IMG/VR virus record: IMGVR_UViG_3300020198_000053
Span: 1 to 33,625 of that record
Origin: a virus
DNA length: 33,625 nucleotides
Direction: 5' to 3' (one strand)
The notes under the pieces are model-generated. The model was not told the DNA's origin, did no database searches, and saw nothing but the letters and a program-made list of their open reading frames with translations. Positions within the stretch are counted from its first letter, which is position 1, and every line of letters begins with the position of its first letter. This document shows, piece by piece, positions 3,089-33,625 of this stretch. Both the position numbers and the translations under genes were made by a program.

Positions 3089-4249
3089 ATGATTAATAGT
3101 AAATATAAGATATATATTGACATGGACGGTGTGATTGCCGACTGGGAAAAGCAATTTAAAACTTATAGCGGGTTACCAGTTGATACCTATATTGCATCTC
3201 ATGGTAAACAAAATCAATATCAATTTGTAAAAAAGAATAGTCCTGGTTTTTATGCAAACATGGATTGGATGGATGATGGCAAGTTGTTATATGATTTTTT
3301 GAAAGATTTACCAATAGAAATATTAAGTCATGCAACTGATGAAAAGGCAGCTGATGGTAAAATAATGTGGCTTAAAAACCATGATATTAAAGCTAAGACA
3401 AATCTTGTAAAACATAGAGAGGATAAGGCTAAATTTGCATCGCCAACTGCTATATTGATAGACGATAGACCAGAAACGATTGAAGAGTTTAATAAAGCCG
3501 GTGGTATCGGTTTATTACACACAAATGCAATAGATACAATAAACAAACTCAAATATTTACTTGGTGTTAAACAAAGTTATAGAATATATAACAGCAGATT
3601 GGATCCTGAATTATGGGATAATGATGTATTAAAACAAGAGGTATTGGAAAAGTTACTTAAGATAGCAAATGCTTTCTATAAAGATACCGAATTAAATGCA
3701 CCTATAGAAGACATATATTTTATTGGTAGCACCGCAGGATATAATTGGACTCCATCTAGCGACATAGACTTACACTTATTGATTGATTTTAGCAAGATCG
3801 ATTCAAACAAAGAACTTGTTAAGAAATATGTAGATTCACTTAAAAATAAGTGGAATCAAGATCATGATATCAATATTGGTAACCATTCTGTAGAGGTCTA
3901 TTTACAAGATATTAATGATGTCAATAGAAGTCAAGCGATATATAGTATTCTTAATAATAAATGGATAAAGAAGCCAATTTACGGAAATGTACAGATTGAC
4001 AAAGATTCTATCAAGAAGAAGTATAATCAGTATGTAAAAATGATAGATGCATCAATTCAGAACGCGGATCTTGATATAATGAAAAATATTATCAAGAAGT
4101 TATATGATATGAGAGAAGTTGGGCTGAGCAGCGGAGGCGAGTATAGTACAGAAAACCTTGTTTTCAAACTATTGAGATCTACAGGTTATATATCAAAATT
4201 GAGAAAAAACGTTAAAGTTGTTTATGATGCAAATCTCAACAAAATATAA
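3089..4249 (+). CDS. HAD 5'(3')-nucleotidase-like / nucleotidyltransferase fusion
   Basis: 386 residues with two enzyme domains. Residues 1-155 are a HAD phosphatase of the 5'(3')-deoxyribonucleotidase type: motif I D11-M-D13-G with ADW, motif II around S80/T83 (ILSHAT), and motif III K114 with DDR at 125-127. Residues about 165-386 form a Pol-beta-superfamily nucleotidyltransferase: GS at 213-214, the metal pair D225-x-D227 (SSDIDLHLL) and a probable third acid in HSVEVYL near 269. The phosphatase may dephosphorylate nucleotides or nucleic-acid ends; the transferase substrate is unknown. It sits directly before the tail tube in a late-looking context, so it may be a virion or head/tail-associated enzyme (inference). 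Both active sites look intact. Confidence 0.75.
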   Translation: MINSKYKIYIDMDGVIADWEKQFKTYSGLPVDTYIASHGKQNQYQFVKKNSPGFYANMDWMDDGKLLYDFLKDLPIEILSHATDEKAADGKIMWLKNHDIKAKTNLVKHREDKAKFASPTAILIDDRPETIEEFNKAGGIGLLHTNAIDTINKLKYLLGVKQSYRIYNSRLDPELWDNDVLKQEVLEKLLKIANAFYKDTELNAPIEDIYFIGSTAGYNWTPSSDIDLHLLIDFSKIDSNKELVKKYVDSLKNKWNQDHDINIGNHSVEVYLQDINDVNRSQAIYSILNNKWIKKPIYGNVQIDKDSIKKKYNQYVKMIDASIQNADLDIMKNIIKKLYDMREVGLSSGGEYSTENLVFKLLRSTGYISKLRKNVKVVYDANLNKI

Positions 4250-26383: not shown

Positions 26384-27445
26384 ATGAAGAGTGTACTAAA
26401 TAAAACGAATATCGATTCAATTAAAAACCCAATATTTCTTGGAGAGGATTTATCTTTACAGCGATACGATTTACAAAAATATCCAAAGTTTTATGAACTA
26501 TACGATCAACAGTTGAACTTTTTCTGGAGACCACAAGAGGTTTCTTTGGTAAAAGATATTGCTGACTACAAAAATTTATCGGATGAAGAACGATTCGTTT
26601 TTGATAGTAATCTTAAGTTTCAAACTATGACTGACAGCATGTTAAGTCGTAGTATTCATCAAATGATGAAATATGTAACAAATCCAGAGTTGGAAATTTG
26701 TATGAATACTTGGAGTTTCTTTGAAACCATTCATAGCAATAGTTACACATATATTTTACAAAACGTATATCCTGATGCTACCAGATTCTTTGATAGTATT
26801 CTGCAAGATAAAGAAATTGTCAGAAGAGCTAAAGCTATTAGTGAAAAATATGATGGTCTCCTGGCAAATGATAAAGATGATATTCGTCAACAAATCTTTG
26901 ATACAGTTCTCGCTACGCAAATTACTGAGGGGCTTGTATTCTATGTAAGTTTCGCTTGCAGTTTCTACTTCGGATATCGTGGCAAGATGGAAGGTAATGC
27001 TAAAATTATTAAGTTTATTAGCAGAGATGAAAATCTACATGTAGCTATTACCCAAAATATTCTTCGTTATTTGAGTTCTAACCCAGACGAAGGGTTCCAA
27101 GAAATCATCAAGAAGAGTGAAGATAAGGTATATGAAGCTTACAAGATTGCTGTAGAAGCTGAAAAAGATTGGGCAGATTATCTATTTAGTAAAGGTAATT
27201 TGGTTGGATTAACTAATGAGAGCTTAAAATCTTATATAGAGTGGTTGGCTAATAATAGATTACAAAGTATTGGATATAAGAAATTATATCCAAATGCCAA
27301 GACAAATTCTCTATCCGGATGGTTAGATAGCTATTATGACAGTAAAAAACTACAGGTAGCACCACAGGAGACAGAGTTGAGTAGCTATGTAAAGGGTGTA
27401 GATAACACCATTAGTGAAAACGCTTTTGATGACTTTAAACTATAA
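26384..27445 (+). CDS. nrdB: ribonucleotide reductase class Ia, small subunit
   Basis: 353 residues. The di-iron and radical residues match E. coli NrdB one for one: D84 (TMTDSM), E114-xx-H117 with tyrosyl radical Y121 (FFETIHSNSY), E182 (TEGLVFY), and E216-xx-H219 (RDENLHVA). A normal iron (or manganese-iron) ferritin-like subunit is therefore expected, requiring oxygen. The C-terminus (NAFDDFKL) provides the short peptide that docks into NrdA. Operon with nrdA. Phage nrdAB raises the dNTP pool during infection. Confidence 0.95.
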   Translation: MKSVLNKTNIDSIKNPIFLGEDLSLQRYDLQKYPKFYELYDQQLNFFWRPQEVSLVKDIADYKNLSDEERFVFDSNLKFQTMTDSMLSRSIHQMMKYVTNPELEICMNTWSFFETIHSNSYTYILQNVYPDATRFFDSILQDKEIVRRAKAISEKYDGLLANDKDDIRQQIFDTVLATQITEGLVFYVSFACSFYFGYRGKMEGNAKIIKFISRDENLHVAITQNILRYLSSNPDEGFQEIIKKSEDKVYEAYKIAVEAEKDWADYLFSKGNLVGLTNESLKSYIEWLANNRLQSIGYKKLYPNAKTNSLSGWLDSYYDSKKLQVAPQETELSSYVKGVDNTISENAFDDFKL

Positions 27446-27473
27446 TTAATTTATTATTTTATTGACCATTCCT

Positions 27474-27482
27474 ATATTTATA
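27474..27482 (+). promoter_or_regulatory. ATATTTATA late-type motif
   Basis: Exact copy 15 nt before the ATG at 27498. Confidence 0.45.
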
Positions 27483-27497
27483 TGTTAGGCGTGCTAT

Positions 27498-28133
27498 ATG
27501 AATGATAAACTAATAAAATCTTTAAAGAAACTGATTCGTGAAACAATTAACGAAAAGTTTACGGACGTACAAAAGTCTTGGACTGAAATGATGGCTAACC
27601 TAGAAAAAGAAATCAAGAAACCGGTGGTTAAAGATGATGACGGAAATTATAATATTTGTGAATGTGATCCTCATTATTTTAGTATCCGACCAGTAGCACA
27701 AGACATTTATAACATAGAATACTTTAAAGATAGGTCAGATAGAGAAAAGAAACTATACGTACATTATGAAGATTTAAAAAAGTTTATTAAAGAAAAGTTA
27801 AGTTCAAAAGCTTTAAATTACGTGGATGCAGCATATAGCAAAAATATAGATAATAGTAAGGATAAAGAAGGTGGTAAGAAAGCTGATAAACAATCTGTAG
27901 AACAAAATCTGGTTCAGCCGGAAAAAGATTATAAGGTTATAAAGTCACCTAAGATGGATTCAATGAATAAAGAAGTGGACGATCCAACCCAACCTATGCG
28001 TGAAGTTGGTAAGTTTGAAAAACAAGTGGACTATAAAAGTCCAAAGCCAAATTATAAGCCACCTACTCTACCAAAGAATCTTCAAAAGTTGATTGTTAAA
28101 TATAAAAAGAGTGGTAAGATTAAGAAAAAGTAA
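27498..28133 (+). CDS. basic uncharacterised protein, possibly virion-packaged
   Basis: 211 residues. The N-terminus KLIKSLKKLIRETINEKF is an amphipathic helix like RLKELIKKLIKEE in the nucleotidylyltransferase at 4872. A small structured part (about 45-110, with NICECDPHYFSIRP) follows, then a long Lys/Asp/Pro-rich disordered region, ending in a strongly basic tail (KYKKSGKIKKK). Basic, partly disordered proteins with a short helical N-terminus are common among phage internal proteins, and the ATATTTATA element suggests late expression. That role is inference; no enzymatic motif is visible. Confidence 0.55.
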   Translation: MNDKLIKSLKKLIRETINEKFTDVQKSWTEMMANLEKEIKKPVVKDDDGNYNICECDPHYFSIRPVAQDIYNIEYFKDRSDREKKLYVHYEDLKKFIKEKLSSKALNYVDAAYSKNIDNSKDKEGGKKADKQSVEQNLVQPEKDYKVIKSPKMDSMNKEVDDPTQPMREVGKFEKQVDYKSPKPNYKPPTLPKNLQKLIVKYKKSGKIKKK

Positions 28134-28139
28134 AAAGTT

Positions 28140-28364
28140 ATGAATCCAAAATATAATCCTAACGATTACAACGCTCTTATTTCACGAATTGATGCAAATT
28201 TAAATACTATTAATGCACGATTAACAACAATTGAAACAGGAGTAACTAATAATGTAGTTAATGTTGAACGCAGAATTACAAAGCTAGAACAATTTAAATG
28301 GCACTTTTTGGGTGCGATAGCTGGAGTTAGTTTCTTCGTTAACTACTTTTACAAAAAACTTTGA
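28140..28364 (+). CDS. coiled-coil protein with C-terminal membrane anchor (holin-associated candidate)
   Basis: 74 residues. Residues 10-50 form a heptad-like coiled coil (ISRIDANLNTINARLTTIE, NVERRITKLEQF). A single hydrophobic segment follows (WHFLGAIAGVSFFVNYFY) with a KKL end. This architecture, a short coiled coil followed by one C-terminal membrane helix, resembles XhlA-type proteins that act beside holins. No endolysin was found in this window, so a lysis role is only a suggestion. It lies 6 nt after the basic protein and just before the promoter at 28361, which overlaps its stop codon. Confidence 0.55.
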   Translation: MNPKYNPNDYNALISRIDANLNTINARLTTIETGVTNNVVNVERRITKLEQFKWHFLGAIAGVSFFVNYFYKKL

Positions 28365-28389
28365 CATTTTATCAGTTTTGATATATCAT
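28361..28389 (+). promoter_or_regulatory. near-consensus sigma70 promoter
   Basis: TTGACA 28361-28366, 17-nt spacer, TATCAT 28384-28389. Best canonical promoter in the window. Predicted start near 28396, with an AAGGA ribosome binding site before the ATG at 28416. It lacks the TGGTG element of the replication promoters. Confidence 0.75.
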
Positions 28390-28415
28390 TAGGTATATCT
28401 AAAAAAAGGATACAT

Positions 28416-28742
28416 ATGAATAAATTAATTATTATTGCATCTTTGAGTGCAACATTAACCGCACAAACATTTGCAGGCGATAGAGAGTGGGCTACGGTAG
28501 GTAAAGTATTAACCGGCGTAGCAGTGGTTCAAGCCATAGATAGAATTGTTAACCCACCAACACAAGTTGTATACGTTCAATCAGCTCCCGTTGTACAACC
28601 AGTATTAGTCCAGCAACCAGTCATTGTACAACCACAACCTGTAGTATACATTCAACCAGCACCTGTAGTTTATTATACAAGTCCTAGTGTGATTGTTTAT
28701 CCGGGTTGTCCTACACCAATCTATCATTATCATCGTAGATGA
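28416..28742 (+). CDS. secreted Pro/Val/Gln-rich protein (moron candidate)
   Basis: 108 residues with a classic Sec signal peptide (MNKLIIIASLSATLTAQTFA, cleavage probably before GDREW). The mature part begins with a short helix (VGKVLTGVAVVQAIDRIV), then repeats of a VVxxQPAPVV type, ending PTPIYHYHRR. Such PVV/QP repeat proteins are seen in bacterial envelopes. It is the only clearly exported protein in the window and stands alone between its own sigma70 promoter and a strong terminator, the layout of a moron expressed independently of the lytic programme. It could alter the host surface, but no function can be assigned. Confidence 0.7.
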   Translation: MNKLIIIASLSATLTAQTFAGDREWATVGKVLTGVAVVQAIDRIVNPPTQVVYVQSAPVVQPVLVQQPVIVQPQPVVYIQPAPVVYYTSPSVIVYPGCPTPIYHYHRR

Positions 28743-28766
28743 TAAATTTATTAAACATAGTTAATC

Positions 28767-28796
28767 AACCACCAGAAATGGTGGTTTTCTTTTTTT
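28767..28796 (+). terminator. Rho-independent terminator
   Basis: AACCACCA (28767-28774) pairs with TGGTGGTT (28779-28786) around a GAAA tetraloop, followed by TTCTTTTTTT up to 28796. Strong. Confidence 0.9.
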
Positions 28797-28807
28797 AACC
28801 GAGACGG

Positions 28808-28838
28808 TTGACTTTAGAAAAACCTCTGGTAGTATGAT
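28808..28838 (+). promoter_or_regulatory. possible promoter of the AAA+ gene
   Basis: TTGACT 28808-28813 and TATGAT 28833-28838 with a 19-nt spacer containing CTGGTA. The spacer is long, so this is weak, but the gene follows a strong terminator and needs a promoter. Confidence 0.4.
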
Positions 28839-28865
28839 TGTACGTTCAATAAAAAACTACAATAT

Positions 28866-29837
28866 ATGAAAAAGACAAACGCCGCTAATCTAACCACCGC
28901 AAAGAATTTCGACATGAAGAAGTATCTTTCTACATGTATTGATCTTCGTCCATCTTCACTTATTATTGATGATATTAAGTGGAAGTATATGGTACGTAGT
29001 GCTATTCGTGGTAAGAATATTCTACTTCTTGGTCCCACTGGATGCGGTAAGACCCTAGCCGCTCAGACTATCGCTAATGTTCTAAATAAGAATGATAAGT
29101 TTTTTTATTTCAATCTGGGTGCTACGCAGGATGCTCGTTCATTCCTAATTGGTAATACCCATTTTGATAAGAATACTGGCACTCTTTTCCGTGAATCAAC
29201 CTTCATTAAGGCTATTCGTACTCCAAATGCTATTATTCTTCTTGATGAAATTTCTCGTAGTCATCACGATGGTGTAAATATTCTAATGACCGTTCTAGAT
29301 GATCTACAACGTTATCTACGTTTGGATGAAAAAGAAGACAACGAGGTTGTTAAGGTTGCTGAGGGTGTCACTTTCGTTGCTACCGCAAACATTGGTAATG
29401 AATATACTGCTACTAGGGTTATGGATCGAGCTTTGCTTAGTCGTTTTCCAGTAAAGATTGAGATGACTCCCCTCGACAAGGATAGCGAGTATAATCTACT
29501 CAAGAGTCGATTTGATATTATTGATAATAATCAGTTGGAAATTCTAAAGGCGGTTTGTGAAATTGCTGATCACACTCGTAAGCAGGTCAAGCAAGAAGAT
29601 AGCAAGTTGACCAATTTTATTCCAACTCGTAGCACGGTTGAAATTGCAGAACTTATTGTTGATGGATTTAATTTGCTTGAAATCGCAGACACTACGATCT
29701 ATCCTAACTTCACCGATGATGGTGGCGTTGACAGTGAACGGACCTACATCAAGCAGTTGGTACAGAAGTATGTAAAGGTAGAGACTAAGGAGAATCTATT
29801 TGCTGATCCGCTAAAGTCAGATCAGCCTCCTTTCTAA
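28866..29837 (+). CDS. MoxR/CobS-like AAA+ ATPase
   Basis: 323 residues. Walker A GPTGCGKT (56-63), Walker B IILLDE (ending D127-E128) with ISRSHHDGVN, sensor-1 FVATANIGNEY, and MDRALLSRF with the arginine-finger region. These are hallmarks of MoxR-type AAA+ ATPases (CobS, RavA, NorQ, CbbQ). Such ATPases act as hexamers that, with a VWA-domain partner, remodel proteins or insert metals. The next gene, 28 nt on, encodes exactly such a VWA protein. A CGT/CTA-rich codon pattern like that of SSB suggests high expression. The substrate is unknown, and genuine cobaltochelatase function is unlikely because no cobalamin genes are seen. Confidence 0.85.
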   Translation: MKKTNAANLTTAKNFDMKKYLSTCIDLRPSSLIIDDIKWKYMVRSAIRGKNILLLGPTGCGKTLAAQTIANVLNKNDKFFYFNLGATQDARSFLIGNTHFDKNTGTLFRESTFIKAIRTPNAIILLDEISRSHHDGVNILMTVLDDLQRYLRLDEKEDNEVVKVAEGVTFVATANIGNEYTATRVMDRALLSRFPVKIEMTPLDKDSEYNLLKSRFDIIDNNQLEILKAVCEIADHTRKQVKQEDSKLTNFIPTRSTVEIAELIVDGFNLLEIADTTIYPNFTDDGGVDSERTYIKQLVQKYVKVETKENLFADPLKSDQPPF

Positions 29838-29865
29838 TACTTAATAAGTATAAAGTATAACCTAT

Positions 29866-31971
29866 ATGAGCAATTATAGTGATTTTTGGTTGGAGGATTA
29901 TGACATTGATTGGGATTTTTCTGATGAGTCTGATTCGGTTGATGTATCCGCATCATCCACAGTGGAAACCGCTAGGCTCATTAGGTTGTCCGCAGCACGT
30001 CGTGCAATCTCAAATTATGTGACCATTCTTACTGGTAAGCAAGTTCCAGTAATGTTTAATGATAAAAACATGAGTTGCACCGATGGGGAAGTAGTTTATA
30101 TCGGTAGTGATGTAAACGAAAAGAATAAATTTGACGTAGCTGTAGGTCTAGCTCTACATGAAGCAAGTCATATTGTGTATAGCAATATGGATATGTATAA
30201 GAATTTATGGCAGAATGTTCCTAGAAGTATTTATGATCTTACTGAACCTTTGAATATTGATAAGACTCAGGTTGCTGAGTTTTGTAAGATGCTCTTCAAT
30301 TACATCGAAGATCGTTATATCGATTACATGGTGTATAGTGGTGCGCCTGGATATCGTGGCTATTATCAGTCTCTATATGACAATTACTTTAATAGCAAGG
30401 TTATTGATGATGGACTGAAGAGTCAACTATATCGTACACCTACAATTGAATCATATTCCTATAGAATTATTAATCTTACCAATATTAATACAGATCTACA
30501 GGCTTTGCCTGGTCTCTATGATATTGCTAAAGAACTAGATCTTAGTAATATTGCTCGTCTTGACAATCCAAGGTCTCGTTACGAGTTGGCATTCAAGATT
30601 GCGGATATTGCATTCAAGAACATTACAGATGGAACACCACAACCAAAGGTTGTGGCGATATCATCCACTAGTAGTGGTGATGGTGGAGAACCTGTATCTG
30701 GAGGTCAAGATGATAATAATAACGTGAGTGTTGCGACTCCAACATCATCTACTGATGTAAATCCGCGTGATAGTAGCCTTGACGATATTTTTGGAGGTAA
30801 TACTACATCGGTTCCTCGAGCTCAAGATCCAACAAAGAATATTGGTGAGGACAAGAATGTAAGCAAGACTAAGACCAACAAGATTGCTAAGGCTTTTGAT
30901 AAGCAGAAGGATTTCTTGGATGGTAAGATTATTAAGAAGAAGGTTTCTAAGAAAGAAAAGAAGATGCTTGATGTTCTTGAAAAGAGTCAAGTTCAAATCA
31001 ACGACGTTGCTGAGGATTATATCCGTAATTATGGAGGTACCGGCGCAGTTGAATGTATTGTGGTAAAAAATCTTACTATGGACTTAATTGAGTCTGATGA
31101 TTTTCATCTCAAGAGTCTTCAGTATGTTACTGGTAAAGTAAATGTTACTGCACCAGTAGCAAATGCTGATATGGTCAAATATATCAATAGTGGAATTATC
31201 ATGGGTGTTAAATTGGCCAAGAGAATTCAATTTCGTAATGAAATTAATATTGATAAGTTTACTCGTCGTCAACATGGTAAAATTGATAAGAGAATTATTC
31301 ATGAATTGGGATGTGATGTAGAAAACATTTTCTATAATACCGCTGTACACAAGTACAAAAGCATGAACTTCCACATTAGTCTAGATGCTAGTAGCAGTAT
31401 GGGTGGCATTAAGTGGCTTAATACAATTAAGTTATGTACCACTATTGCAAAGGCTGCTAGTATGCTTGAAAACATCAATGTTAGCATTAGTGTTCGTTCA
31501 AGTCTGGATAAGAATCCATATGTAGTCATGGCTTATGATTCTCGTAAGGATAAATTTTCTAAGATTAGAAATCTATTTCCATACTTGATGCCAAGTAGTA
31601 CTACACCAGAAGGATTGTGTTACGAAGCAATTATTAAACATTTGCCAAAGTGCAGTGTAGATGGTGATAATTACTTTATTAATATTAGTGATGGTGAACC
31701 ATGTTTCAGCATTTCAAATAATAATTTCTCTGTGTCTTATAGTGGTATTGCTGCTTGTCAACACACACGTAAACAAGTATCTAAGATTCGTGATAATGGA
31801 TATAGAATTATTTCATACTTTGTGACTGACATGTATGGACATAATCAACCTAGTTTGGTTGAGAATTTCAAGGTAATGTATGGCAGTGATAGTCACTTTA
31901 TTAACTTTGATAATCTCAATCAGATAGTTGGTACTATTAATAAAAAGATGCTAGAAAGTGTTGACGTATAA
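29866..31971 (+). CDS. HExxH metallopeptidase-like / VWA protein (CobT-like)
   Basis: 701 residues, partner of the upstream MoxR ATPase. The N-terminus is acidic. Residues 98-102 are HEASH (zincin HExxH, in VGLALHEASHIVY) and N145-x-x-E148-D149-R150 supplies the probable third zinc ligand. The centre (about 260-350) is Ser/Asp/Gly-rich linker. The C-terminal VWA domain has a complete MIDAS: D507-A-S-S-S511, the TTPEG threonine near 580, and ISDGEP with the acidic residue near 605. CobT, NorD and CbbO partners of MoxR proteins share the VWA, and some CobT-like proteins keep the HExxH-EDxR core. It may be an ATPase-controlled protease or metal-dependent chaperone acting on a phage or host protein (inference). 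Confidence 0.8.
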   Translation: MSNYSDFWLEDYDIDWDFSDESDSVDVSASSTVETARLIRLSAARRAISNYVTILTGKQVPVMFNDKNMSCTDGEVVYIGSDVNEKNKFDVAVGLALHEASHIVYSNMDMYKNLWQNVPRSIYDLTEPLNIDKTQVAEFCKMLFNYIEDRYIDYMVYSGAPGYRGYYQSLYDNYFNSKVIDDGLKSQLYRTPTIESYSYRIINLTNINTDLQALPGLYDIAKELDLSNIARLDNPRSRYELAFKIADIAFKNITDGTPQPKVVAISSTSSGDGGEPVSGGQDDNNNVSVATPTSSTDVNPRDSSLDDIFGGNTTSVPRAQDPTKNIGEDKNVSKTKTNKIAKAFDKQKDFLDGKIIKKKVSKKEKKMLDVLEKSQVQINDVAEDYIRNYGGTGAVECIVVKNLTMDLIESDDFHLKSLQYVTGKVNVTAPVANADMVKYINSGIIMGVKLAKRIQFRNEINIDKFTRRQHGKIDKRIIHELGCDVENIFYNTAVHKYKSMNFHISLDASSSMGGIKWLNTIKLCTTIAKAASMLENINVSISVRSSLDKNPYVVMAYDSRKDKFSKIRNLFPYLMPSSTTPEGLCYEAIIKHLPKCSVDGDNYFINISDGEPCFSISNNNFSVSYSGIAACQHTRKQVSKIRDNGYRIISYFVTDMYGHNQPSLVENFKVMYGSDSHFINFDNLNQIVGTINKKMLESVDV

Positions 31972-31988
31972 TATATCGGTGATATAAT
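31961..31988 (+). promoter_or_regulatory. TTGACG-N16-TATAAT promoter
   Basis: TTGACG 31961-31966, 16-nt spacer ending GGTGA, perfect -10 TATAAT 31983-31988. The -35 lies inside the end of the VWA gene. Leader about 33 nt, then AAGGA before the ATG at 32028. Resembles the TGGTGTA class with one base changed and a one-base shift. Confidence 0.65.
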
Positions 31989-32027
31989 TTTGAAAGGTAG
32001 TATAACAATTAAACAAAAGGATAAAAA

Positions 32028-32387
32028 ATGAAAAAGACAGATCGTAAGAATAAGACAAACCTAGTAGTACTTTGGCCAACCAATATATTTACTATTGAAG
32101 AACTAAATAATGCAAATCCAGATTTCGTAAATATTACTTTACGAGTTCGACTAAAGAAGGCCATTGACAATGGTGAAGTTGGTGAAGTTGGTTATTTGCA
32201 TAATGGTAAGGGTCGTCCCCGTGTTGTATTGGCATGTACGCCAATTACTCAAAATCATATTACCGAAGCTAAGAATCGTGGGTGTGTACTAAAGGATGGA
32301 CTAAATGTAAACGTTGTTAATATCGACAATGCTTCTGTAGAAACACCAGTTGCTGAGGAAGTCAAATCAGAAAAGGTAATGGCTTAA
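32028..32387 (+). CDS. small winged-helix-like DNA-binding protein
   Basis: 119 residues. FTIEELNNANPDFVNITLRVRLKKAIDNGEVGEVG followed by the GKGRPRVVL wing-like hairpin matches a small helix-turn-helix or winged-helix layout; the basic N-terminus (KKTDRKNKTN) fits nucleic-acid binding. The acidic tail (ETPVAEEVKSEKVMA) is probably disordered. It has its own promoter, an AAGGA ribosome site and a terminator 25 nt after the stop, so it is an independently controlled gene, perhaps a transcription factor of the phage. Assignment rests on pattern only. Confidence 0.6.
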   Translation: MKKTDRKNKTNLVVLWPTNIFTIEELNNANPDFVNITLRVRLKKAIDNGEVGEVGYLHNGKGRPRVVLACTPITQNHITEAKNRGCVLKDGLNVNVVNIDNASVETPVAEEVKSEKVMA

Positions 32388-32630
32388 TCAATTACCTTTA
32401 TGTGACCAAAGCGGACTCAATAACAAGGGTCCGTTTTTGTCTTTTGTATAATACAAAATATCGGCTTTTTTAGAATGTGATTTAATATTTTTAATAATAC
32501 CTTCAACCATGTTCCAATTGCCATGATAGATTGGTTCATCTAGTTCGCTATCGTATATCGCATATTTGATAGTTGAAACTTCAAATATATAAAACGTTGT
32601 CTCTTTTGGGTTGATTTTTTTGTACTTCAT
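32388..32630 (-). CDS. small minus-strand protein
   Basis: 80 residues, the only minus-strand gene supported. The composition looks like real protein (YAIYDSELDEPIYHGNWNMVEGIIKNI), there is no competing + frame in 32440-32640, and the ATG at 32630 is preceded 11 nt upstream, on the minus strand, by ATATTTATA (32642-32650), the same element that precedes + strand genes. It converges on the winged-helix gene, sharing the base next to its stop, and contains that gene's terminator in its 3' end. No known domain recognised. Confidence 0.55.
   Translation of the reverse strand: MKYKKINPKETTFYIFEVSTIKYAIYDSELDEPIYHGNWNMVEGIIKNIKSHSKKADILYYTKDKNGPLLLSPLWSHKGN
32412..32438 (+). terminator. Rho-independent terminator of winged-helix gene
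   Basis: CGGACTC (32412-32418) pairs with GGGTCCG (32427-32433, one G-T pair) around an 8-nt loop, followed by T5. It lies within the 3' coding part of the minus-strand gene. Confidence 0.7.
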
Positions 32631-32641
32631 GATAGACTACA

Positions 32642-32650
32642 TATAAATAT
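32642..32650 (-). promoter_or_regulatory. ATATTTATA late-type motif, minus strand
   Basis: Reads ATATTTATA on the minus strand, 11 nt before the ATG at 32630. Read on the + strand it is TATAAATA overlapping the start of the DruA-like gene. Confidence 0.45.
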
Positions 32651-33625
32651 GGATGCATTACAAGAATTCTTTGGGGTAGAGGCATTTGACTATGGACTTA
32701 ATAAATTTAAGTTTGTTGAAAATCTAGATTTTTTAAAGGCTATGTCTGTAGAAGAACAGACTTTTTATAAGAAATGGATTGAATTACAATCACTTAATAA
32801 TTATGCTAATAAAGCATGTCAAGCTAAAGCTAAAATTTGGAAGCCCACCGATCTAAATGATGAAGAATTGACAATAAAGGAGATTGAAAATCTTAGACCA
32901 AAAGTTGTACATGTAACCAATAATAAACTATTAGACAATGATTGGGTAATGTTGCGTACATTTGTACATACGATGGAGTATGCTCAGACGCCAGGTAGAT
33001 TCGTTAAGTTCTTAATTACAGATGGCAACGACGATGACCCCCGTTATTTAGGCGTCATTAGTATGTCTAGTGATGTAATTACAATTACAGATCGTGATAA
33101 TTATATTGGTTGGACGCCAGAGGATAAACTAAAAAATAAAAAACTAGCTCATAGTGCTATTGGTAGTTGTATTATGAGTACCCAACCTTTTGGATATAAT
33201 TTCTTGGGTGGTAAGTTAGTAGCGTCATTAGTGACTGCAGAGACGGTCAGGAACGCATGGCAGGCTCTCTATAACCAGCTTTTGGTTGGAATTACTACAA
33301 CTAGCCTCTACGGCAGTTATAGCATGTATAATAGCTTAAAATGGTGGCATAAGTGTGGTACAAGTGCTGGAAAAATGTCTATTAAACCAGATGATGCTAT
33401 TTATAAGGTGTGGCACGATTGGATTAAAAAGAATAAAGCGGAGAAATATAAAGATGCGATGACCCAACGTGAAGGTGTTAGTGGACCCGTAACTGGAGCT
33501 AAAACTCGGGTATTGAACATGATTTTTTCTGAGTTAGGGGTTAAATCTAGTGCTTATGTACATGGGTTTGAACGTGGTACATACTATGCTTGTCCATATA
33601 AGAATTCAAAAGACTTTTTTTGTAG
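32649..33625 (+). CDS. DruA / DUF4338-like protein (3' partial)
   Basis: 325 codons are visible from ATG 32649 with no stop before the window ends. The core resembles the DruA (DUF4338) family known from Druantia defence loci and from many phage and transposon proteins: VRxFVHTMEYAQTPGRFVKF-type start, RYLGVISMSSDV, DRDNYIGW, FGYNFLGGKLVASLV and ITTTSLYGSYSMYNSLKWW-HKCG. The first 90 residues are helical and distinct. DruA's biochemical activity is not settled. Diverges from the minus-strand gene with only 18 nt between starts. In a lytic phage it could be a nuclease-like or host-takeover factor, or superinfection exclusion; this is inference. The absent C-terminus limits the call. Confidence 0.65.
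   Translation, partial: MDALQEFFGVEAFDYGLNKFKFVENLDFLKAMSVEEQTFYKKWIELQSLNNYANKACQAKAKIWKPTDLNDEELTIKEIENLRPKVVHVTNNKLLDNDWVMLRTFVHTMEYAQTPGRFVKFLITDGNDDDPRYLGVISMSSDVITITDRDNYIGWTPEDKLKNKKLAHSAIGSCIMSTQPFGYNFLGGKLVASLVTAETVRNAWQALYNQLLVGITTTSLYGSYSMYNSLKWWHKCGTSAGKMSIKPDDAIYKVWHDWIKKNKAEKYKDAMTQREGVSGPVTGAKTRVLNMIFSELGVKSSAYVHGFERGTYYACPYKNSKDFFC

What the first reader, a model, noticed from the sequence alone, without database searches (positions are those of the whole stretch)
32649..33625. DruA/DUF4338-like gene carried by a lytic-type phage
The segments RYLGVISMSSDV, DRDNYIGW and FGYNFLGGKL match the DruA pattern known from Druantia anti-phage loci, but the gene sits in a T4-like genome, adjacent to the MoxR/VWA cluster. 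Its role in a phage is unclear: inter-phage competition, an anti-defence decoy, or a nuclease used in replication.
Basis: partly seen in the sequence, partly recalled or inferred. Interest (0 to 1): 0.6.

Follow-up and report, generated by a model that had tools for sequence, protein, structure and literature searches.

The report
Phage DruA-like acyltransferase-fold protein, Druantia-free
A large aquatic phage carries a genuine relative of DruA, a protein known from a bacterial anti-phage system, but it stands alone among DNA-replication genes, looks like an acyl-transferring enzyme rather than a nuclease, and is distantly related to the DNA-modifying Mom enzyme of phage Mu.

Summary
The ORF at 32649-33625 (+), cut by the contig end about 68 residues short, matches Pfam DruA (PF14236, 1.2e-23) and PADLOC DruA. 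It heads a family of 79 IMG/VR loci (59-95% identity) with fixed gene order MoxR / HExxH-vWA / ~120 aa / small minus-strand gene / DruA-like. Two further phage types exist, in Pelagibacter myophages and in cyanomyophages (inside the clamp-loader genes). Phage DruA-like proteins were already published (PMC12774648).

The 'nuclease' and 'Druantia' readings fail. Two AlphaFold models match almost only GNAT-fold acyltransferases in the PDB, though every match is weak. PMC10853773 also calls DUF4338 a GNAT. DruE and DruD are absent from 13 long phage records that all carry the gene. New here: DruA and Mu Mom are detectably related (profile-profile P 1.2e-4; the Mom HMM finds DruA ORFs).

Best guess: a stand-alone GNAT-type acyltransferase working during phage DNA replication, most likely on DNA bases as Mom does (about 0.4). 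CoA use, acyl transfer and DNA as substrate are inferred. SAR11 hosts nearly lack restriction systems, which weakens a purely anti-restriction purpose. Moderately interesting; not a new kind of system.

The parts
32649..33625 (+). DruA/DUF4338-like ORF (long form); first 325 of about 393 residues, cut by the contig end
33003..33113 (+). GNAT-like strands beta2-beta3 (residues 119-141) and the conserved S-S-D-V-I ... R-D-N-Y-I-G-W segment (to residue 155)
   Evidence: DSSP of model; alignment; coordinates from residue numbers
33183..33215 (+). QPFGYNFLGGK (residues 179-189): loop between beta4 and alpha3, where GNATs bind CoA pyrophosphate (consensus Q/RxxGxG/A). Q179, G182, G187, G188, K189 invariant across phage and MAG long forms; role inferred
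33294..33329 (+). T-T-T-S-L-Y-G-S-Y-S-M-Y (residues 216-227): beta5 and start of alpha4; Y227 sits where GNATs carry the general-acid Tyr (inferred)
32388..32630 (-). small 80-aa ORF on the opposite strand directly upstream, kept in many relatives; unknown function
32028..32387 (+). 119-aa neighbour of unknown function, conserved in order
29866..31971 (+). 701-aa protein with HExxH (LALHEASHIVY) and vWA/MIDAS (DASSSM): partner of MoxR; conserved neighbour, not shown to act with the DruA-like protein
   Evidence: motifs read by eye; PMC7824862
28866..29837 (+). MoxR-type AAA+ ATPase, conserved neighbour

Best explanation
The gene encodes the long form of the DUF4338/DruA family: a GNAT-fold protein of about 393 residues with an N-terminal helical part, a GNAT core (window residues about 85-240) and a C-terminal helical extension. 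It acts alone, without the Druantia helicase or accessory proteins, as part of the phage's replication programme. Most likely mechanism: the conserved QPFGYNFLGGK loop binds an acyl-CoA, Y227 serves as the general acid, and an acyl group is transferred to a nitrogen of a base in phage DNA, as the related Mom enzyme does to adenine, altering or protecting replicated genomes. Shown: family membership, recurrent gene order, purifying selection, absence of Druantia partners, sequence kinship of the DruA family with Mom. Supported but weak: the GNAT fold. Inferred: CoA binding, acyl transfer, DNA as substrate.
For: Pfam/PADLOC DruA matches. AF2 model pLDDT 87, pTM 0.84, with strand/helix order of a GNAT. 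Foldseek PDB top-50 lists are all (full model) or nearly all (core) GNAT-superfamily, including NAT10/Kre33 RNA cytidine acetyltransferases. DUF4338 named a GNAT in PMC10853773. Bacterial/short DruA vs Mom: P 1.2e-4, score 39.9 over 110 columns, against at most 24.5 in 30 unrelated control comparisons. The Pfam Mom HMM finds three ORFs that are DruA proteins, and a Mom HMM built here finds one at 2.3e-5. Replication-gene settings: between gp44 and gp62/regA in S-SSM7 and S-CAM9, between gp43 and uvsX in HTVC008M, near clamp genes in pelagiphages. No DruE/DruD in 13 phage records. dN/dS 0.06-0.13.
Against: No PDB match reaches E < 0.001 (best 0.006; TM-scores at most about 0.45). The long phage form alone vs Mom is not significant; the link runs through bacterial and short DruA. 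The H-Y pair shared by Mom and bacterial DruA is not conserved in long phage forms (S-T in L049 and Mosig-type). Many relatives carry a real Mom as well (21 of 79 loci), so the two are not interchangeable. SAR11 hosts almost lack restriction systems (PMC7029224), so anti-restriction protection is a weak motive there. No modified base has been measured.
Confidence: 0.4

Rival explanations
1. GNAT-fold acyltransferase whose substrate is a protein or RNA (host RNA polymerase, ribosome or tRNA, a replication or virion protein), used for host takeover or for assembly together with MoxR/vWA.
For: Most PDB matches are protein or RNA acetyltransferases; phage GNATs that acetylate RNA polymerase are known (PMC7824862); fixed neighbourhood with MoxR/vWA.
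Against: Profile kinship is with Mom, a DNA enzyme; cyanophage and HTVC008M copies lie away from MoxR/vWA, inside replication genes. No candidate substrate.
Confidence: 0.27
2. Catalytically inactive or DNA-reading GNAT-like protein, a binding or recognition module (perhaps DruA's role in Druantia too), or a decoy that disturbs host Druantia or other DruA-based defence.
For: Canonical Q/RxxGxG/A motif is only partly met (QPFGYN); Mom/bacterial-DruA H-Y pair lost in long forms. The long phage form branches with Druantia DruA rather than with the short form.
Against: Loop and core residues are invariant across highly diverged phage types, more typical of an active site. A decoy would be expected to evolve fast; dN/dS is 0.06-0.13 and DruA is more conserved than most neighbours.
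Confidence: 0.15
3. Phage-borne exclusion factor used against superinfecting phages, a one-gene derivative of Druantia.
For: DruA belongs to a known anti-phage system; long-form copies also sit in bacterial contigs beside integrase and resolvase genes.
Against: No DruE/DruD in 13 phage records; conserved place in replication and MoxR neighbourhoods. Single-gene DruA defence is unreported in the papers read.
Confidence: 0.1
4. Nuclease used in replication or recombination.
For: Lies near replication genes in relatives.
Against: GNAT-type matches, no nuclease family hit in Pfam, PHROGs or PADLOC; one RuvC structure at E 0.37 and TM 0.17 is noise.
Confidence: 0.03

Closest known systems
DruA of Druantia type I (PF14236; Nitrosococcus watsonii plasmid pNWAT01, L288)
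   Same: Same Pfam family; same LGGKL-x-A-x-L and TTxS..G..S.Y..L motifs; joins the phage long forms apart from the short branch in the tree.
   Different: The phage gene has no DruE or DruD anywhere in 13 long phage records; it carries its own N- and C-terminal extensions conserved in phages.
DruA-like proteins of Synechococcus phages (S-PRM1 etc., PMC12774648; PHROG 19197)
   Same: Same family, stand-alone in T4-type phages; published by structure comparison.
   Different: About 25-30% identical; a separate clade, placed between gp44 and gp62 rather than beside MoxR/vWA.
DUF4338 of Pelagibacter phages HTVC008M and Mosig
   Same: Full-length homologues at 32-33% identity, also near the peptidase/CobS(MoxR) pair.
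   Different: HTVC008M has a second, cyanophage-type copy between gp43 and uvsX.
Mom of phage Mu (PF25680), GNAT-fold adenine-modifying enzyme
   Same: DruA family and Mom are distantly related: shared N..S after beta4 and Y.A.N/G-W/F motifs.
   Different: Window protein itself does not match the Mom profile; Mom co-occurs as a separate gene in many relatives.

Membership tests
DUF4338/DruA protein family (PF14236) | match above the curated cut-off over most of the model | tested here: met
   84 bits against cut-off 27, model 25-290 of 297
Druantia defence system (type I) | DruE helicase encoded with DruA | tested here: not met
   0 of 13 long phage records; positive control plasmid rings. The window itself ends inside DruA, but in relatives the downstream genes are not DruE
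Druantia defence system (type I) | DruD accessory gene | tested here: not met
   DruD 0 of 13, control rings
Druantia defence system (type I) | DruB and DruC accessory genes | not tested
   no profile accession was at hand for a search
Druantia defence system (type I) | protects a host against phages | not testable with these tools
   needs plaque assays
GNAT superfamily | beta2-beta3-beta4-alpha3-beta5-alpha4-beta6 fold | tested here: inconclusive
   predicted element order fits and PDB matches are nearly all GNATs, but best E is 0.006 and TM is at most about 0.45; PMC10853773 assigns DUF4338 to GNAT
GNAT superfamily | Q/RxxGxG/A acyl-CoA loop | tested here: inconclusive
   QPFGYN: Q and first G conserved, last position N
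GNAT superfamily | binds CoA and transfers an acyl group | not testable with these tools
   needs biochemistry
Mom family (PF25680) | match to the Mom profile | tested here: not met
   window protein's only Pfam hit is DruA; long form vs Mom not significant; kinship runs through bacterial/short DruA
Mom family (PF25680) | modified adenine in phage DNA | not testable with these tools
   no base data

The most novel reading that the evidence does not exclude
The whole DruA/DUF4338 family descends from the same GNAT branch as Mom and consists of nucleic-acid acyltransferases. The phage long form would be a second, unrecognised base-modification enzyme built into the replication module of T4-type phages, and Druantia's DruA would be a modification or modification-reading component rather than a nuclease.
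Probability: 0.3. Interest if true: 0.7.

Novelty: new member of a known kind. Interest (0 to 1): 0.4.

Why it matters
Druantia type I's DruA has no established biochemical role in the papers read here. Finding that the family is kin to Mom, and that abundant aquatic phages keep stand-alone copies inside their replication genes, gives a concrete test (look for acylated bases, CoA binding) and warns that a DruA hit in a phage is not evidence of a Druantia system.

Tried and rejected
Nuclease: no family or fold support. Complete Druantia: DruE/DruD absent. Direct long-form vs Mom profile comparison: not significant. Direct sequence search of the PDB: nothing. NCBIfam: no hit. T4 late-promoter motif TATAAATA overlapping the DruA start (32642-32649): 15 copies in the window, reached by 2 of 100 shuffles, and this copy overlaps the ATG, so not used as evidence. 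Search for other contigs with the window's exact DruA allele: none in IMG/VR. A paper on the Mu Mom fold (doi 10.1093/nar/gkaa319) was not held, so Mom active-site residues were not compared with published mutants.

Full report
What is there. The window is a complete virus record of 33,625 bases, itself probably a fragment of a larger genome. Pfam DruA PF14236 matches with E 1.2e-23, PADLOC DruA with 3.6e-16, and PHROG 19197 (unknown function) with 1e-24. Full-length relatives are 390-397 aa; L003, 95% identical, is 393 aa, so about 68 residues are missing here.

The family. A scan of IMG/VR gave 79 loci at 59-95% identity. Wherever the flank is long enough they show the order MoxR, HExxH/vWA protein, ~120-aa protein, often the small minus-strand ORF, then the DruA-like gene, followed in most by a UvdE-like ORF (named by eye) and a nucleotide-kinase-like ORF (named by eye). 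A Mom-family gene lies nearby in 21 of these loci. A second, short DruA paralogue of about 250 aa lies downstream in about 15. The loci were fetched through the DruA-like gene, so this shows order, not how often such phages carry it. More distant relatives are Pelagibacter phages HTVC008M and Mosig (32-33%) and cyanomyophages (about 25-30%). In cyanophages the gene lies between gp44 and gp62/regA. HTVC008M has two copies, one next to the peptidase/CobS pair and one between gp43 and uvsX. The closest named isolate by UvsX and MoxR, Microcystis phage Mel-JY01, lacks the gene, so it is not needed by every such phage.

Constraint. dN/dS between the window gene and relatives is 0.06-0.13, at or below most neighbours. 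The protein is more conserved than the vWA, p119 and p211 neighbours in most comparisons. This suits a steady phage function better than a decoy under an arms race, though it does not exclude one.

Fold. The AlphaFold2 model of L003 has pLDDT 87 and pTM 0.84, with strand and helix order beta-beta-(helices)-beta-alpha-beta-alpha-beta as in GNATs. Its first 50 PDB matches are all p300/CBP, MYST or other GNAT acyltransferases, E 0.006-0.05. A separately modelled core (pLDDT 76) gives again almost only GNAT-superfamily proteins, including GNA1, HAT1 and the RNA cytidine acetyltransferases Kre33/NAT10. No match reaches 0.001 and TM-scores are low, so this is consistent rather than proven. PMC10853773 independently calls DUF4338 a GNAT domain. 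Invariant residues across phage and MAG long forms cluster in QPFGYNFLGGK (beta4-alpha3 loop) and TTSLYG..S.Y (beta5-alpha4). The first resembles the GNAT CoA loop without fitting it exactly; Y227 stands where GNATs carry the general-acid tyrosine. Both roles are inferred.

Kinship with Mom. Pfam's Mom profile, searched in 398 Pseudomonadota genomes, returned three ORFs that the DruA profile had found on its own in the same places. A Mom HMM built here found one of them at 2.3e-5. Profile-profile comparison of bacterial plus short DruA with Mom gave P 1.2e-4 over 110 columns; ten unrelated phage families compared with DruA, Mom and the long form never scored above 24.5, against 39.9 here. The long phage form is clearly homologous to bacterial DruA (P 1.2e-25) but not directly to Mom. 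One pair of residues shared by Mom and bacterial DruA (H-Y) is not kept in the long form, so the chemistry need not be the same.

Not Druantia. DruE and DruD profiles find nothing in 13 phage records of 119-251 kb that all carry the DruA-like gene, while the Nitrosococcus Druantia plasmid rings. In the tree the phage long forms and Druantia DruA share a branch apart from the short forms, but Druantia DruA is a separate set and branches are long. Long-form copies also occur in bacterial contigs, one beside a tyrosine integrase and a serine recombinase.

Mechanism and doubts. The best reading is a stand-alone GNAT-type acyltransferase of the replication phase, with DNA bases as the most likely target because of the Mom kinship and the replication setting. 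Against it: no base data, weak fold statistics, co-occurrence with a real Mom in many relatives, and the near absence of restriction systems in SAR11 hosts of some relatives (PMC7029224). A protein or RNA substrate is the main rival.

Known or new. Phage DruA-like proteins were published for Synechococcus phages (PMC12774648), and the GNAT assignment is published. The window-type clade, its fixed neighbourhood, the systematic absence of Druantia partners and the DruA-Mom profile link were worked out here; I did not find them in the papers searched, which is not an exhaustive search.

Noticed in passing
window 32424-33625 vs L002/L003: Over 26649-32423 the window differs from L002 at 2 sites in 5.8 kb, then from 32424 on at about 7% of sites through the DruA-like gene: a sharp breakpoint, either recombination swapping the DruA allele or an assembly chimera near the contig end.
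   Followed up: partly
BFVD hits A0A3G4ZXG3 (Faunusvirus), A0A5K0UAJ3 (Yasminevirus), A0A3G4ZRA1 (Dasosvirus): Predicted proteins of giant viruses resemble the long form in structure (E 2e-18 to 2e-8, 14-22% identity), suggesting the long DruA form also occurs in giant viruses.
   Followed up: no
L060:337-1110 and 20 further loci: Bona fide Mom genes (PF25680) near MoxR in phages that also carry the long DruA-like gene; one record (L072's) has four Mom matches.
   Followed up: partly
L060:10032-10784, L062, L063, L074, L076: Second, short (about 250 aa) DruA paralogue in the same phages, closer to bacterial short DruA than to the long form.
   Followed up: partly
window 32388-32630 (-): 80-aa minus-strand ORF squeezed between p119 and the DruA-like gene, kept in many relatives; unknown function.
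   Followed up: no
L277:6912-9113: Verrucomicrobium contig with the long DruA-like domain fused behind an about 360-aa unknown N-terminal region.
   Followed up: no
L273:7056-9233 and L272:223-2299: Long DruA-like gene directly downstream of a conserved 277-311-aa unknown partner in two bacterial MAGs, beside integrase and/or resolvase genes: a possible mobile two-gene cassette.
   Followed up: partly
window gene starts, e.g. 6734, 9242, 19399: Most genes lack a Shine-Dalgarno sequence and have A/T-rich leaders, hinting at a host that does not rely on it (for example Bacteroidota or some cyanobacteria); the closest named phage by UvsX and MoxR infects Microcystis.
   Followed up: no
window 3089-4249: 386-aa protein combining a 5'-3' deoxyribonucleotidase-like N-terminus with a C-terminal part matching an unknown PHROG.
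   Followed up: no
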